Origin: Capsulimonas corticalis
GTDB taxonomy: Bacteria > Armatimonadota > Armatimonadia > Armatimonadales > Capsulimonadaceae
Reading direction: 5' to 3'
Length of the DNA stretch: 64,000 nucleotides
Assembly: GCF_003574315.2 (NCBI RefSeq)
Contig: NZ_AP025739.1
Location: 7,006,001 to 7,070,000 of the forward strand
Made by a program: the position numbers and the translations under genes. Shown piece by piece: positions 17,227 through 52,099 of this stretch. Position 1 is the first letter of the stretch; each line of letters starts with the position of its first letter. The notes under the pieces are model-generated. The model made no database searches. It saw only the letters and a program-made list of their open reading frames with translations, and was not told the DNA's origin.

Positions 17227-17301
17227 TGGTGGGCGATGAGGGATTCGAACCCCCGACCTCCTCGATGTGAACGAGGCGCTCTACCACTAAGCTAATCGCC
17301 C
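17227..17301 (-). tRNA. tRNA-Val (anticodon CAC), CCA encoded
   Basis: On the minus strand the sequence folds as a standard tRNA: acceptor GGGCGAT paired with ATCGCCC, a D-arm with AGTGGTAGAG, anticodon stem CCTCG/CGAGG around loop TTCACAT (anticodon CAC, reading GUG), and T-arm with GGTTCGAATCC. The discriminator A and CCA are encoded (17230-17227). The 3' end points towards the integrase gene, making this the probable integration site of the defence island. Confidence 0.97.
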
Positions 17302-43916: not shown

Positions 43917-44333
43917 CTATCGATTCCGTTGATACCTCTGCAAGTCAGTGACAACCTTATCGACTACGAATTCACGTAGCTCTTCATCGGCGGCGAGCAG
44001 ATTCTCGGCTTTGAGCACGACAATATCCATGGTTTTACGGAGTTCTTGATGCTCCACCCAAAACATCTGCGGCAGAGAAAGGACGTTTCCCAAAAGATCG
44101 CCGGCATAGTAGTCGCCTTCGGCAAATGGCTCATCAATCAGCAGCATCAACGCCAAGGGAACAAGATAATCCAGGCTGATCTTCTGTCCGATCAAAACGC
44201 GCAAGTTTTCAACGGTGAAATCCTTCAAAGGCACCGTACGCAAGCGATGGCATTCCGTCACAAGATGGCTTGGGTAAGTCGGCTCTCCCCAAACTGTACC
44301 ATCCAAATCTTGTAATGTCGAATTGAGAAACAT
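43917..44333 (-). CDS. CdiI-type contact-dependent inhibition immunity protein
   Basis: The 138-residue protein matches the CdiI_2 immunity family pattern: LQDLDGTVWGEPTYPSHLVTECHRLRTVPL, then DFTVENLRVLIGQKISLDYLVPLALMLLIDEPFAEGDYYAGDLLGNVLSLP and W-x-x-x-x-EL. These proteins neutralise a cognate CDI toxin. No CdiA/CdiB or polymorphic toxin is nearby, so it is an orphan immunity gene, probably protecting against neighbours' toxins. Confidence 0.85.
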   Translation of the reverse strand: MFLNSTLQDLDGTVWGEPTYPSHLVTECHRLRTVPLKDFTVENLRVLIGQKISLDYLVPLALMLLIDEPFAEGDYYAGDLLGNVLSLPQMFWVEHQELRKTMDIVVLKAENLLAADEELREFVVDKVVTDLQRYQRNR

Positions 44334-46847: not shown

Positions 46848-48059
46848 CTAATCCTTCCAAACAAGTAAAAGTAGAGTGTATACATACTCGTTGGACACAC
46901 GCCGGCTTTCTTCCACAATCGTCGATTCATCGTCTATACCCTCACACCACATCTCTGCTGGCCATTCAGCTTTCGACTGACATGGCCATTCTTCATTTGC
47001 AAACAATTGGGAAGCCAATGAATCAGGATGTAGTTGTTTTGGAATGAAGGCTTGAAAGAATGGAGATCTTACCGTCCATTGTATGGCTCCCAACTTCGAC
47101 ACAACGAGTGCACATCCCCAATTCGATGCTCTTACTAACCGGCGAAGAGATGCAAGCAATGAGACTTCATATTCCTCACAGAGCTCATCCGCCGCCGCAA
47201 GCGAGGGAAGCGTCGCGCCAAAGTTACTCGGCAGAAGTGCAGACGGCATCAAGAGCAACGAGCTGAACACATTTGCCTGCATTTCGGCTCCAGCATCGAA
47301 GTCGTCAAGCTGGCTACTACTATCCTTGTAGAGCGCCTGCCCGGAATGAAGCACGGCATGCCCAATCTCATGTCCGAAGGTGAATCGCCGGCGGCGCTCA
47401 TCTAAGACAGATGAGTTCAACAATATGATCCCGGCTTCTCCATTGGTTATAAGACAGCCGTCTAATGGGTCGAGAGGAACGTTTTGAACAATGAGGCAAA
47501 GTCGCTGGGCAAGAACGCTCAGATCTACTGGAGCGCTAAGATCGTCCATCAGGGCGATTGTTTCACCAATTTTTTTCTCTAAGGTGCTTTCCAGAAGCTT
47601 TAAATTTGCCTCATTTGTGTAAAGCAATGCTTTCGATGTTACCGTAAGTCCAGATCCACGGTTCATCACAGCACTGCCTAAAAAAGGTTTTGATGGCGCC
47701 CAGGATGCCGGTCCGAGCGTCGCGATTATCTTTTCGGCTCCATGGACGAAATCTGAGGACATCGTCGCCCACTCAGTACTAATAAGTTCGTTTATTCGGA
47801 GCACTAATCGACGTCTTACCAGCACTTGTGAAATCTTGGCAAGTGTGTCATCCAGGAGCTTATCCGAGATATGATCGTCGCAATGATACGCTACGACATT
47901 CTCAACACCATAGATTGCCTCCATGAGCCCTTCACGTTCGGTCTGAGGACATCGAGCAGCAAACTCATCGGGCTTTGGCGCCATCCGTCCGGAAAGGCGA
48001 CTATCGATATACTCGTCAAGCAGCTGTGCGGCTCGTGTCTCTGGACGTTCTTTACTCAC
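46848..48059 (-). CDS. ImmA/IrrE-type zinc metalloprotease (paired with ECF sigma factor)
   Basis: GTG 48059, with GGCGAGG upstream, gives 403 residues. The metalloprotease motif FTFGHEIGHAVLH lies near residue 230, with the downstream Glu in AEMQANVFSSLLLMP, as in ImmA/IrrE (DUF955) proteases that cleave repressors. The N-terminal ~60 residues (RAAQLLDEYIDSRLSGRMAPKPDEFAARCPQ) resemble segments seen in kinase- or sigma-linked regulators. It follows the ECF sigma gene by 48 bp on the same strand. A role in releasing or degrading a regulator of the divergent ubiquitin-like operon is an inference from position. Confidence 0.82.
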   Translation of the reverse strand: MSKERPETRAAQLLDEYIDSRLSGRMAPKPDEFAARCPQTEREGLMEAIYGVENVVAYHCDDHISDKLLDDTLAKISQVLVRRRLVLRINELISTEWATMSSDFVHGAEKIIATLGPASWAPSKPFLGSAVMNRGSGLTVTSKALLYTNEANLKLLESTLEKKIGETIALMDDLSAPVDLSVLAQRLCLIVQNVPLDPLDGCLITNGEAGIILLNSSVLDERRRRFTFGHEIGHAVLHSGQALYKDSSSQLDDFDAGAEMQANVFSSLLLMPSALLPSNFGATLPSLAAADELCEEYEVSLLASLRRLVRASNWGCALVVSKLGAIQWTVRSPFFQAFIPKQLHPDSLASQLFANEEWPCQSKAEWPAEMWCEGIDDESTIVEESRRVSNEYVYTLLLLVWKD

Positions 48060-48107
48060 AATAATCCTCGCCAATTCACAGTATCAGCGCTTCGCTTGAG
48101 TGCCGTG

Positions 48108-48656
48108 CTATACCCCTTCATCACGGCGCCTCTGATAAGCTTTACGCATTATCCGCTTTTGGAAGCTTTCCGCATCAGCTGGCGTCATCGCAAGGCGCTC
48201 AGCACATTCGCGTACTGATAGGCGCTCCCAAAATCGAAGATGAATGAACTCACGCTCGGCTTCCTCAAGACAAGACACCACCTCATCTACTACAAGACGC
48301 CGATACGCCTCTTCCTGCGGATCATCTTCCGCAGATGGCTCCGGCTGTAGCTCAATATCGTCAGTGCGATGCCGACAATCAGCCCGTACCTGCTCACGCC
48401 AAACATTTCGAGCTATACCACATAGCCACGTGTAAAACGTACTATCGCCACGAAATGTGTCAATCTTCTGTACGGCGCGCAACATTGCGCCAGACAACAC
48501 TTCGTCAACGGTCAGTGGAATATTCGTCAGATCCTTGCAAATAAACCCACGCACCTTGCCCATAAGGATGCGAAACTCCTCCCGGTCCGGTTGGAGTCCC
48601 TCCCTTAATTGAGCTACGACCGCTTCATCCGGATCGGCGTCGCGCATTCTGACCAT
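48108..48656 (-). CDS. ECF RNA polymerase sigma factor
   Basis: The 182-residue protein has sigma region 2 (LTVDEVLSGAMLRAVQKIDTFRGDSTFYTWLCGIARNVWREQVR, about 48-91) and region 4 (VSCLEEAEREFIHLRFWERLSVRECAERLAMTPADAESFQKRIMRKAYQR, about 127-177). It has no extra C-terminal domain or membrane part. It is transcribed away from the ubiquitin-like operon across a 183-bp shared region and is followed by the ImmA/IrrE protease. No classical anti-sigma gene is adjacent, so the protease protein may take that part. Confidence 0.9.
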   Translation of the reverse strand: MVRMRDADPDEAVVAQLREGLQPDREEFRILMGKVRGFICKDLTNIPLTVDEVLSGAMLRAVQKIDTFRGDSTFYTWLCGIARNVWREQVRADCRHRTDDIELQPEPSAEDDPQEEAYRRLVVDEVVSCLEEAEREFIHLRFWERLSVRECAERLAMTPADAESFQKRIMRKAYQRRRDEGV

Positions 48657-48696
48657 GTCGTATTCTGATCCCCAATGATACGGTTCAAGCAGTTAG

Positions 48697-48721
48697 TGGC
48701 AAATAAGGCTTGCTTTTGCCA
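48697..48721. promoter_or_regulatory. Inverted repeat in the divergent region of the Ubl operon
   Basis: TGGCAAA (48697-48703) and TTTGCCA (48715-48721) form a dyad with an 11-bp centre, 41 bp from the sigma-factor start and 118 bp from the ubiquitin-like gene start. It is a candidate operator controlling one or both sides. An A9 run follows directly. Confidence 0.45.
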
Positions 48722-48838
48722 TGAAAAAAAAATTATTGTCACGGCAATTCTGACGATCTGCGATCACTAACTCATGACGGCGAAAAACAACAGCGGGTCA
48801 CCACAGCCGTCAGAAGTGTGATCCAACAGGACATAATT

Positions 48839-49609
48839 ATGACACAAGTAGACACCATTCAGCTTATCCTTCGCGGCGAGGGAATCACCGGAAACCGCTC
48901 TATAACCCCTCTCCTGTCGGCTTTGCTCAAAGATATCATCACTGAAGCGCATATTGATTGTGGCTACAAGCGAAGTGACGATCAAGAACTCTTCGTGTTC
49001 CTTGAGTCTCGGGATGATGAAATTGATGTGCGGGAAATCCTCATCGCCGATCTCGGCATCCGTGACGGCGGCACCGTCTTTGTCCACGGATGTCGCAATA
49101 TCCATGTAACTGTCGATTACAAAGGTCGCCAGCATTCGCAGCATTTCAAGCCGAATGTGCGCGTCGCCGAGCTTCTCCAGTGGGCGATCAAAGCCTTCAA
49201 CCTTCCAGGCGATGAGGAAGCCGCTCTCGCTCAGAGCGAGCATGCTCCACACCTTGATCCGCACCAACATATCGGCCAGATCCACGAAGCGCCCGGATGC
49301 GACCTGAGACTTGTTCTCGTGGCGCATCAGCGGACTGCCCATCATCACGTCCGTGTTCACAATGAAGAAAATGGGAGCAACATTGAGATCCTCGCAACGG
49401 ATGATACAACGATCAATATGGTCATCGCGGAGATGTACGAGAAATTTCATATCACCCCAAAGGACGATGACCGTTTGAGTTGCGAGGCGACCGGGCAAGA
49501 CGTGCTTGTGTTTCGCGCCATGACACTGAAGGAGTATATTGCGGCAGGACAGTGTCATAAACTGGAATGGCTCTTCGTTGGCGGCACCGGAGGCGCACAG
49601 GAATGCTGA
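48839..49609 (+). CDS. Ubiquitin-like modifier protein with Gly-Gly and C-terminal tail (BilA-like)
   Basis: ATG 48839 (CAACAGGAC upstream) gives 256 residues. At least two beta-grasp, ubiquitin-like units can be seen: about 87-157 (NIHVTVDYKGRQHSQHF, then VRVAELLQWAIKAFNL) and about 168-252 (NIEILATDDTTINMVIAEMY...EWLFVGG). Residues 1-85 (LFVFLESRDDEIDV, DLGIRDGGTVFVHGCR) may be a third. The C-terminus is G248-G249-T-G251-G252-AQEC, a di-glycine with a four-residue tail that the downstream JAMM peptidase could remove. First gene of a four-gene overlapping operon encoding E2-, JAMM- and E1-like proteins; the order equals BilA-B-C-D. Confidence 0.82.
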   Translation: MTQVDTIQLILRGEGITGNRSITPLLSALLKDIITEAHIDCGYKRSDDQELFVFLESRDDEIDVREILIADLGIRDGGTVFVHGCRNIHVTVDYKGRQHSQHFKPNVRVAELLQWAIKAFNLPGDEEAALAQSEHAPHLDPHQHIGQIHEAPGCDLRLVLVAHQRTAHHHVRVHNEENGSNIEILATDDTTINMVIAEMYEKFHITPKDDDRLSCEATGQDVLVFRAMTLKEYIAAGQCHKLEWLFVGGTGGAQEC

Positions 49610-50121
49610 GTGAACCGACGCCGGTTGACCCAGAGGTGGCGGCAGCGACATTTAGCCGCCACCTGGACGCTTTTTGGCAAGGGCTTCGCGCAGACCGATC
49701 CGACTGGGAATTATATCGTATTGACGATCTCAATGTAGTAATAAAACTGTACGCCGTCCGAAGCGACGGCGTACGCGAAGACTACTATCTCAAGCTTGGA
49801 GCTAATTTTTACGATTCCTGGCCACCACTCGCCTGGTTCGTCAAGCCCAATGATTGGTCCCAGGCAGATCCTGGATCGCAATGGTGGCCGAAGCTGGCGA
49901 CGACGCCAACTTGGTTCGGCCTGCATGCGAGCTACCCTTACCGAGATGGTTCACAGCGGCCACTCCTCTGCTTCACCCATTGTGCTCAGTACTACCAGAC
50001 TAACCATGCTCCGGAAGAACACACTGTATGGAAGCAAGGTAGGCACACGCTTGCCATGACCGTAAACCGAGTTGCCGAAATTTTGCGCCCCCCTTATTAT
50101 GCCGGGAGATCCGATATATGA
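49603..50121 (+). CDS. E2-like ubiquitin-conjugating fold protein (BilB-like)
   Basis: ATG 49603 overlaps the modifier's stop by 7 bp and gives 172 residues. The pattern fits bacterial E2-like proteins: a central beta region (NVVIKLYAVRS, YYLKLGANFYDSWPPLAWFVKP), then RPLLCFTHCAQYYQTNH (C123 and C127, H135) followed by W143 and a closing helix TLAMTVNRVAEIL with PPYYAGR. C123 is the likely thioester cysteine by position after the beta meander, C127 the alternative. Assignment rests on this pattern and operon position rather than strong identity. Confidence 0.72.
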   Translation: MLSEPTPVDPEVAAATFSRHLDAFWQGLRADRSDWELYRIDDLNVVIKLYAVRSDGVREDYYLKLGANFYDSWPPLAWFVKPNDWSQADPGSQWWPKLATTPTWFGLHASYPYRDGSQRPLLCFTHCAQYYQTNHAPEEHTVWKQGRHTLAMTVNRVAEILRPPYYAGRSDI

Positions 50122-50693
50122 TATATATCTCAGAATCAACCTGGCAGACAATGCTTAAGGAGCTGGCTCGCACGAAGGGCAACGTCGAGCGCGTCGCGTT
50201 CCTTGATGGGCCTCGGCGCGGCGGCATCGGTTTTGTGACGACCGTCACTCTCCCAGATGCTATCCTAGCTCCCGGATCATATGACGTAACGCCAGCAGCA
50301 ATGAGCCAAGCCGGGAAACATCTTCGCCGCTTCCAGATCGAGCGCTTAGCCCAGATACATACGCACGACGGAGATTGGGTTAATCATTCTGGCAAGGACA
50401 GTTCTCAGGCCTACTCACAAATGCCAGGCGCTTTGTCGATCGTGCTGCCACGACATGGGCGTGAGGCTCCTATGCCGAGCGAATCAGGGATACACATCCG
50501 TGAGGAGCATGGATGGCGGCGTCTTGATACCGACGAGGTAGACGCGACGTTTTTGATCATTCCATCAGTTCTCGACTTTCGCAGTCCCGAATCTTTGGCA
50601 TCTGAGGAGACAATCACATGGAGCGAGTATCGAGCCGCCACGAAGGCGATGCTAGCGGGATTCTTTCACCGTTTTCTGAAGTTACCCCGGTAG
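50118..50693 (+). CDS. JAMM/MPN deubiquitinase-like metalloprotease (BilC-like)
   Basis: The 191-residue protein overlaps the E2 stop as ATGA. The complete JAMM zinc motif is present: E24 (VERVAFLDG), H81-x-H83 (QIHTHDGDW) and S91-x-x-D94 (HSGKD), with the canonical ten residues between H83 and D94. Such enzymes cleave after the C-terminal Gly of ubiquitin-like proteins, here probably trimming the AQEC tail of the modifier and/or removing it from targets. The C-terminal ~70 residues form a separate mixed region that also encodes, in another frame, the start of the E1 gene. Confidence 0.88.
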   Translation: MIYISESTWQTMLKELARTKGNVERVAFLDGPRRGGIGFVTTVTLPDAILAPGSYDVTPAAMSQAGKHLRRFQIERLAQIHTHDGDWVNHSGKDSSQAYSQMPGALSIVLPRHGREAPMPSESGIHIREEHGWRRLDTDEVDATFLIIPSVLDFRSPESLASEETITWSEYRAATKAMLAGFFHRFLKLPR

Positions 50694-52099
50694 ATGTTAC
50701 CGTCGAAATTGAGCCTGAGTTTGCTAACCAAGCGAGCGTTCAACACACAGCATGGATGATCGTCAATTTGTTAGCCAGGCTGGAAGGCGTGGTAGCTCGT
50801 GTAGGCATTCTCGCTGACGAGCAGGTGTTCCAAGCCGGACGTATTGTTCCGCTTGGAACGCCATCCACAAACTTCATGGAAGCCCTCCTAAGAGGAGCCG
50901 CAGCAATTGGGGTAGTACCCGTCAGTGACGGCAAGCTGCCAGACAGTGTGTGCATATCAGTAGGACCTGGATCAGCCAATGGAGCGTGGCTCCGAGCACA
51001 TGGAAACGGCTGGACGGGTGGTATAGCTCCAGGTGTATATGAAGGCGCTGCGGATTCACCGCTGCCGTTCGGCCCCTACATTTCTGCATGTATGGCGGTG
51101 GCTGAAGTTTTCAAGCTGGTTCGTATGAGCCCTGAGATGCGAAGCGAGATTCAGCATGTGACTTACAGCGCCTGGGAACACACAGTCGGCGCTGCAACCG
51201 ATAGCGGCCCGTCCGTTATCGGAGACCTCCAAATCGACTGCACATTAGCTGGCGTGGGAGCAGTTGGAAGCGCCTGGCTCCATGCCATCTGGGCGCTCGA
51301 TTGCCTGACCGGGCAAGTCATATTATCCGACAACGACCAGAAAGGCGTTGATGTAACCAACATCAATCGATACAGTTTCTTTGGTAAAACCTCAATAGGC
51401 CAGCCCAAAGCAACGGAAGCTGCTCGCACAGCCTCAGCCTCACCTATCGTTTGGCTTCCGAATGACGTTGGCATCGAGCGTATCTCCGCTCGTCATGGCT
51501 TGCTCGTATCAGCAGTTGATCGGAATTCAGTCCGCCAGGCTATTCAGTGTCTATATCCTGATCGCATTCTATCTGGCTCTACAAACGACCTTCGCGCTGA
51601 AATCATGCGGTGCGGCCCTCCAGGTGTTGGAGCATGCCTAGGGTGCTTTAACCCGTTGGAAACAGCCGCCCCCGATTCCGAGATGCAGGCCCAACTACGA
51701 CAGGATCCGGAGTTAGCCTTAGAGGTATCAAAGAGCCTCCATATCTCAGTAGCTGAAGTTCACGCATGGGCTCAAAATGCAACTTGTGGTGAAACAGGCG
51801 ACCGGATTTTGGGATATTTACGTCATGCCGACGATGGCCCCGATCGCTTCGCAGTCGGATTCGTCTCAGTGATGGCCGGTGCTTTATTGGCGGCAGAAAC
51901 CATTAAAGAACTGCTCCATAGCCCTCTGCCGCTAAACGATATAAGAAATCGCGCAACGTTTCAATTCGTGACGCCGGCCTCGCCTTGGAATGGCTCAAAA
52001 CCCTACCGTAGAGAGGAGCAATGCACGCTATGTGCGCCTGGCACCGACGCACATCGTATCTGGACCAAGCGATTTCAAAGCCACGCCCCCAGAGGTTAA
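50618..52099 (+). CDS. E1-like ThiF-domain activating enzyme (BilD-like)
   Basis: ATG 50618, with TGAGGAGAC upstream, starts 76 bp inside the JAMM gene and gives 493 residues. Residues 1-195 are an N-terminal domain of unknown type. The ThiF/E1 adenylation domain follows: GVGAVGS (212-218), acidic LSDND (236-240), N248/R251 in NINRY, K264 and VSAVDRNSVRQ (297-306). Zinc cysteines pair as CLGC (340-343) and CTLC (469-472). C390 in NATCGETGD is the candidate thioester cysteine. The enzyme would adenylate the modifier's terminal Gly and pass it to the E2-like protein. Confidence 0.9.
   Translation: MERVSSRHEGDASGILSPFSEVTPVDVTVEIEPEFANQASVQHTAWMIVNLLARLEGVVARVGILADEQVFQAGRIVPLGTPSTNFMEALLRGAAAIGVVPVSDGKLPDSVCISVGPGSANGAWLRAHGNGWTGGIAPGVYEGAADSPLPFGPYISACMAVAEVFKLVRMSPEMRSEIQHVTYSAWEHTVGAATDSGPSVIGDLQIDCTLAGVGAVGSAWLHAIWALDCLTGQVILSDNDQKGVDVTNINRYSFFGKTSIGQPKATEAARTASASPIVWLPNDVGIERISARHGLLVSAVDRNSVRQAIQCLYPDRILSGSTNDLRAEIMRCGPPGVGACLGCFNPLETAAPDSEMQAQLRQDPELALEVSKSLHISVAEVHAWAQNATCGETGDRILGYLRHADDGPDRFAVGFVSVMAGALLAAETIKELLHSPLPLNDIRNRATFQFVTPASPWNGSKPYRREEQCTLCAPGTDAHRIWTKRFQSHAPRG

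What the first reader, a model, noticed from the sequence alone, without database searches (positions are those of the whole stretch)
48839..52099. Complete bacterial ubiquitin-like conjugation operon (BilABCD order)
Four overlapping genes encode a ubiquitin-like protein with terminal Gly-Gly, an E2-like protein, a JAMM peptidase with every zinc ligand (E24, H81, H83, D94) and a ThiF/E1 enzyme with two CxxC pairs. Overlaps of 7, 4 and 76 bp tie them into one translational unit. Published Bil systems with this order protect against phage by tagging virion proteins. The modifier, E2 and E1 N-terminal domain here look divergent, so this may be an undescribed subtype.
Basis: partly seen in the sequence, partly recalled or inferred. 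Interest (0 to 1): 0.92.

Follow-up and report, generated by a model that had tools for sequence, protein, structure and literature searches.

The report
Ubiquitin-like operon with sigma-protease switch
A bacterial gene set that probably attaches a ubiquitin-like tag to proteins, as in known anti-phage systems, sits beside an unusual pair of control genes (an alternative sigma factor and a CapP-type protease) that also turns up beside other kinds of bacterial immune operons.

Summary
The operon is real at the stated coordinates. Four overlapping genes encode a ubiquitin-like protein, a distant E2, a JAMM peptidase with all zinc ligands and an E1. Two details need correcting. The modifier has three tandem Ubl segments, not two. 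It ends ...GGTGGAQEC, so the Gly-Gly is internal and would need trimming. It works like a Bil system but is not a canonical member: no BilB model hit, and its E1 groups with rhizobial three-Ubl operons (support 95/97) outside the BilD clade. Syntenic rhizobial relatives exist, so the operon alone is a new variant of a known kind.

The more novel part lies just outside the reported coordinates. The divergent pair upstream is an ECF-like sigma factor plus a CapP peptidase carrying a conserved ~150-residue N-terminal extension. The pair recurs twice in another genome of the phylum, beside a type II CBASS operon and beside an MBL/E2-E1-JAB operon. Among 398 Pseudomonadota genomes sampled, 35 have strong CapP matches, none with the extension. 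Of 20 of those loci examined, 17 have a CapH-like gene and none a related sigma factor. I propose a sigma-based, protease-controlled regulator of Ubl-conjugation immunity. The association is shown; the mechanism is inferred.

The parts
48839..49609 (+). Ubl modifier, 256 aa, three tandem Ubl segments, C-terminus ...GGTGGAQEC
   Evidence: PADLOC BilA 1.6e-29 over residues 6-166; third domain 167-249 predicted as beta-grasp with pLDDT mostly 74-90, Foldseek hits ubiquitin, SUMO, ISG15 and BilA 8tyx_A (TMt 0.76)
49603..50121 (+). E2-like protein, 172 aa, candidate catalytic Cys123 with H135
   Evidence: C123, Y130, Y131, H135, W143 invariant in rhizobial homologues; hhalign against a BilB/E2-like alignment, probability 69.9%, E 4e-5; low-confidence model (pLDDT 41) whose best PDB hits are BilB chains, E 0.12-0.21
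50118..50693 (+). JAMM/JAB peptidase, 191 aa, E24 H81 H83 S91 D94
   Evidence: PADLOC BilC 1.3e-12; residues checked; weak match to BilC 8tyx
50618..52099 (+). E1 (ThiF fold), 493 aa, C390 candidate catalytic Cys, CxxC 340-343 and 469-472
   Evidence: Pfam ThiF 9.9e-13; PADLOC BilD 1.6e-15; PDB BilD 8tyz 3.2e-11; C390 invariant among three-Ubl E1s; clade support 95/97
48108..48656 (-). ECF-like sigma-70 family factor (regions 2 and 4), divergent from the operon
   Evidence: Pfam Sigma70_r2 2e-8, NCBIfam sigma70-ECF 4.9e-18; best non-self match in three genomes searched is the CapP-adjacent sigma of G282
46848..48074 (-). CapP-family ImmA/IrrE peptidase (residues 167-405, HEIGH) with conserved N-terminal extension 1-~166
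   Evidence: PADLOC capP 1.8e-46 over the whole CapP model; extension shared with two G282 proteins
48657..48838 (.). 182-bp divergent intergenic region, presumed to hold both promoters
   Evidence: Gene layout; no promoter motif above chance found

Best explanation
This is a horizontally acquired, stress-inducible protein-tagging immune operon. The E1 (C390) would adenylate and load the three-domain modifier once the JAMM peptidase has trimmed its C-terminal tail to expose glycine. The E2-like protein (C123) would transfer it to target proteins, possibly phage structural proteins as in Bil, and the JAMM would also reverse tagging. Expression is most likely controlled by the divergent pair. 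The N-terminal extension of the CapP-type protein holds the sigma factor inactive, and a damage or infection signal (single-stranded DNA for known CapP) activates the peptidase, frees the sigma factor and switches on the operon. Shown: genes, family relationships, active-site residues, synteny, recurrence of the sigma + extended CapP pair beside three different immune-type operons. Inferred: conjugation, targets, phage defence, sigma binding by the extension, and the signal.
For: Family matches for Ubl, JAMM, E1 and CapP. Syntenic relatives in Sinorhizobium and Rhizobium with HTH + ImmA/CapP genes in the same divergent position. Sigma + extended CapP pair beside type II CBASS (cyclase 1.9e-148, SAVED effector 7.8e-125, E1-E2 4.1e-190, JAB 3.9e-48) and beside MBL + E2-E1-JAB in G282. 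All three intact extended CapPs in 291 genomes of the phylum have the sigma gene immediately upstream. Of 398 Pseudomonadota genomes, 35 have CapP matches at E<=1e-15, none reaching the conserved part of the extension (earliest query residue 134); of 20 such loci examined, 17 have a CapH-like HTH and 0 this sigma. Low GC3 (47-58%) against sampled flanking genes (69-81%) suggests acquisition. CapP is activated by ssDNA and cleaves CapH, and CapW or CapH+CapP occur on 219 of 544 Bub operons (PMC13373217).
Against: E2 is only remotely recognisable. The extension has no family match, so an anti-sigma role is a guess from its position. All sigma + extended CapP pairs come from two genomes of one phylum, with a broken copy of the CapP part in a third (G190, no sigma seen). 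No shared promoter motif above chance. The modifier's first two segments were not confidently modelled (pLDDT <50). No functional data.
Confidence: 0.6

Rival explanations
1. The operon is a Ubl conjugation system as described, but the sigma factor and CapP protein act differently: CapP cleaves the sigma factor to shut the system off, so the pair sets a timer or brake rather than an inducer.
For: Known CapP cleaves its adjacent partner CapH (PMC13373217), and here the sigma gene occupies CapH's position; no anti-sigma family is detectable in the extension.
Against: Cleaving an activator would not switch on a neighbouring operon, unlike the known CapH+CapP logic; the conserved extension occurs only in the sigma-paired form and would have no role in this reading.
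Confidence: 0.2
2. It is a Bub-like or stress-response pathway (covalent or filament-forming Ubl) rather than anti-phage defence; the modifier acts on host proteins or self-assembles.
For: Bub operons share regulators of this kind and have not been shown to protect against phage (PMC13373217); three-domain bacterial Ubls forming filaments are recalled from Gong et al 2025 (abstract from memory, paper not held).
Against: BilA, BilC and BilD models match while Bub models could not be tested; both operons beside the regulator in G282 resemble immune operons.
Confidence: 0.25
3. The operon is a decayed or non-conjugating remnant: the E2 is not an active E2 and the system is inactive.
For: E2 recognised only remotely; the GG is internal; JAMM has HTHD instead of HxHP.
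Against: All four frames are intact with catalytic residues conserved against relatives at ~20-30% identity, which implies selection.
Confidence: 0.08

Closest known systems
Bil (BilABCD, bacterial ISG15-like)
   Same: Gene order; first two Ubl segments match the BilA model; JAMM and E1 match BilC and BilD; an ImmA-type protease gene next to the operon also occurs at canonical Bil loci L101-L104
   Different: Three Ubl segments instead of two; E2 not matched by BilB or DUF7665; E1 outside the canonical BilD clade; E2 motif C-x5-Q-x-Y-x3-H rather than the published CEHH
Rhizobial three-Ubl operons (Sinorhizobium fredii GR64 L003, Rhizobium L004, L010, L011)
   Same: Same order, three-segment modifier ending TGGA, same E2 cysteine, E1 sister clade
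   Different: About 30% E1 identity and ~20% modifier identity; an HTH + ImmA/CapP pair (CapH+CapP in L003) or similar, not sigma + extended CapP
CapH+CapP regulators of CBASS and Bub
   Same: CapP peptidase domain (1.8e-46), divergent and adjacent to an immune-type operon
   Different: Partner is an ECF-like sigma factor, not CapH; CapP carries a ~150-residue N-terminal extension
CapK+CapS and CapW
   Same: Regulatory genes beside the same kinds of operon (PMC13373217)
   Different: Unrelated protein families; repressors rather than a sigma factor

Membership tests
Bil | Ubl, E2, JAMM, E1 genes in this order | tested here: met
   E2 only by remote evidence
Bil | BilA with two Ubl domains | tested here: not met
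   256 aa against a 162-position model; third beta-grasp at 167-249
Bil | BilB-family E2 | tested here: not met
   No PADLOC BilB or Pfam hit, while canonical L101 scores 8.7e-65 and matches DUF7665 at 2.4e-66
Bil | E2 catalytic Cys with C-E-H-H motif (PMC11354881) | tested here: inconclusive
   C123 and H135 conserved, E and first H replaced by Q129 and Y131
Bil | BilC JAMM zinc ligands | tested here: met
   E24, H81, H83, D94
Bil | E1 within the BilD clade | tested here: not met
   BilD clade 98/96, window in a separate three-Ubl clade 95/97
Bil | Tags phage structural proteins and protects from phage | not testable with these tools
   needs bench work
CapH+CapP | CapP peptidase | tested here: met
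   capP 1.8e-46, HEIGH motif
CapH+CapP | CapH HTH repressor next to CapP | tested here: not met
   sigma factor in its place; no other gene-like ORF between it and the operon
ECF sigma / anti-sigma pair | Sigma regions 2 and 4 | tested here: met
ECF sigma / anti-sigma pair | Adjacent protein that binds and inhibits the sigma factor | not testable with these tools
   extension has no Pfam family; binding not modelled
Type II CBASS | CD-NTase in operon | tested here: not met
   none among the four genes; present in L039
Bub | Bub protein models | not tested
   no models available; papers not held

The most novel reading that the evidence does not exclude
An alternative sigma factor paired with an N-extended CapP protease is a further class of controller for bacterial Ubl-conjugation immune operons, acting by switching on transcription (sigma release) instead of removing a repressor, and moving as a module between Bil-like, CBASS and MBL/E2-E1 systems.
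Probability: 0.5. Interest if true: 0.78.

Novelty: new variant of a known kind. Interest (0 to 1): 0.62.

Why it matters
Known controllers of such operons (CapW, CapH+CapP, CapK+CapS) work through repressors. A sigma-based switch built on the same CapP protease would show that these immune systems can be wired to an activator, and would give a way to find further operons by their regulator. The operon also extends three-Ubl conjugation systems from rhizobia to a distant phylum, with a C-terminus that needs processing.

Tried and rejected
Viral contigs: no relative of the E1; the CapP query found only ImmA-like proteins without the extension or the sigma. Phage records: none. First genome-contig scan with the single E1 found nothing. 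Shared two-box promoter in the divergent region: best score 12 of 13, reached by 10 of 30 shuffles, so no evidence. A sigma-like gene, a small protein and an ImmA-helicase precede canonical Bil loci L101 and L102; I tested whether the small protein is the same domain as the CapP extension and found no support (hhalign 0.3%); the sigma-like proteins are only weakly related (59.7%, E 9e-5), so I treat these as parallel, not the same module. Structure models from three-sequence alignments were poor except for the third Ubl. The E1 tree row L109 was taken from the wrong ORF and should be ignored; deep forks are unresolved. G190's CapP is broken by frameshifts and has no visible sigma, so it is not counted.

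Full report
Observation. The four ORFs exist with overlaps of 7, 4 and 76 bp. PADLOC gives BilA 1.6e-29 for residues 6-166 of the first protein, BilC 1.3e-12 and BilD 1.6e-15, and nothing for the second protein. Pfam gives ThiF for the E1. By sequence, the only PDB entry type matched by the E1 is BilD. JAMM ligands and both CxxC pairs are present. The first protein is longer than BilA and ends GGTGGAQEC, so the Gly-Gly is not terminal.

Relatives. tblastn in plasmids found a syntenic operon in Sinorhizobium fredii GR64, annotated multiubiquitin protein, hypothetical, Mov34/MPN, ThiF, with CapH- and CapP-like genes divergent, and another in Rhizobium sp. WYJ-E13. A profile scan of genome contigs found only two more, both Rhizobium. 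Their modifiers are also about 240 aa and end TGGA. The E2-like proteins share C123, YY130-131, H135 and W143. The E1s share C390 and the zinc cysteines. In 291 genomes of the window's phylum the only other E1 match at E<=1e-10 was G190.

Is it Bil? Canonical Bil loci were found in Alphaproteobacteria with the BilD model and confirmed by PADLOC for L101 and L104. In an E1 tree the canonical BilDs form one clade (98/96, with the BilD-like L107) and the window plus four rhizobial three-Ubl E1s another (95/97). The E2 is related to BilB remotely: hhalign 69.9%, E 4e-5 against an alignment of BilBs from Bil loci and two other E2-like proteins, and the three best PDB fold matches of a weak model are BilB chains, though with E 0.12-0.21. 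The third Ubl segment is a well-predicted beta-grasp. Hence: works like Bil, is not a canonical member.

Regulators. Divergent from the operon lie an ECF-like sigma factor (48108-48656) and a peptidase whose residues 167-405 match the whole CapP model at 1.8e-46. Residues 1-166 are an extension. Searching the phylum with this protein returned two full-length relatives, both in genome G282 and both directly preceded by a sigma gene. One pair leads a type II CBASS operon (SAVED effector, cyclase, E1-E2, JAB); the other is divergent from an MBL + Prok-E2_A-ThiF-JAB operon. The two G282 proteins align with the window's along the whole length, and the sigma factors align too. With the window sigma as query, the best non-self hit in three genomes is the CapP-adjacent sigma of G282 (54 bits, against 33 for the best paralogue in its own genome); the second pair's sigma ranks third among the non-self hits. 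A profile of the extension finds these three, a broken copy in G190 and one weak hit at E 0.007. In 398 Pseudomonadota genomes, 35 have CapP matches at E<=1e-15; none reaches the conserved part of the extension. Of 20 of those loci examined, 17 carry a CapH-like HTH and none this sigma. The neighbourhoods were not selected for, so finding a conjugation-type immune operon at all three is informative, but the sample is two genomes.

Mechanism. Published CapP is activated by ssDNA and cleaves the repressor CapH (PMC13373217). Replacing CapH by a sigma factor reverses the logic: an activator must be released, not a repressor destroyed. The simplest model is that the extension is an anti-sigma domain fused to its own protease. 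This is inference; no anti-sigma family is detected. A possible resemblance of the extension to motifs in sigma-linked proteins of other phyla is from memory and untested.

Limits. Papers defining Bil and Bub structures were not in the library, so statements about them rest on a review (PMC11354881), PMC13373217 and memory. I found no paper joining ECF sigma factors with CapP, but the library lacks most subscription journals, so novelty of the pair is provisional.

Noticed in passing
L101:289-4933 and L102:23-4501: Canonical Bil operons preceded by a sigma-like protein, a ~210-aa protein and an ImmA peptidase-UvrD helicase-PD-(D/E)XK fusion of ~1120 aa; a different sigma + ImmA arrangement beside Bil.
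   Followed up: partly
L103:7486-8664 and L104:3849-4795: Other Bil loci have divergent HTH + ImmA proteins (fused in L103; separate, with a capP match at 2.6e-33, in L104).
   Followed up: partly
L110 (G000:C1 about 4183480-4183845): The same genome carries a second conjugation-type enzyme, a 601-aa protein matching PADLOC E1-E2 at 3.5e-132.
   Followed up: partly
L038:3692-7000 (G190): A short Ubl ending QQGGGV, E2, JAMM, E1 operon with a frameshifted extended CapP upstream and an XRE + ImmA pair downstream.
   Followed up: partly
46848-52099: GC3 of 47-58% in the six genes against 69-81% in the three flanking genes sampled; suggests the block was acquired. The only tRNA in the window is at 17227, so no nearby integration site was seen.
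   Followed up: partly
43917-44333: CdiI_3-family immunity protein (1.6e-28), not followed.
   Followed up: no
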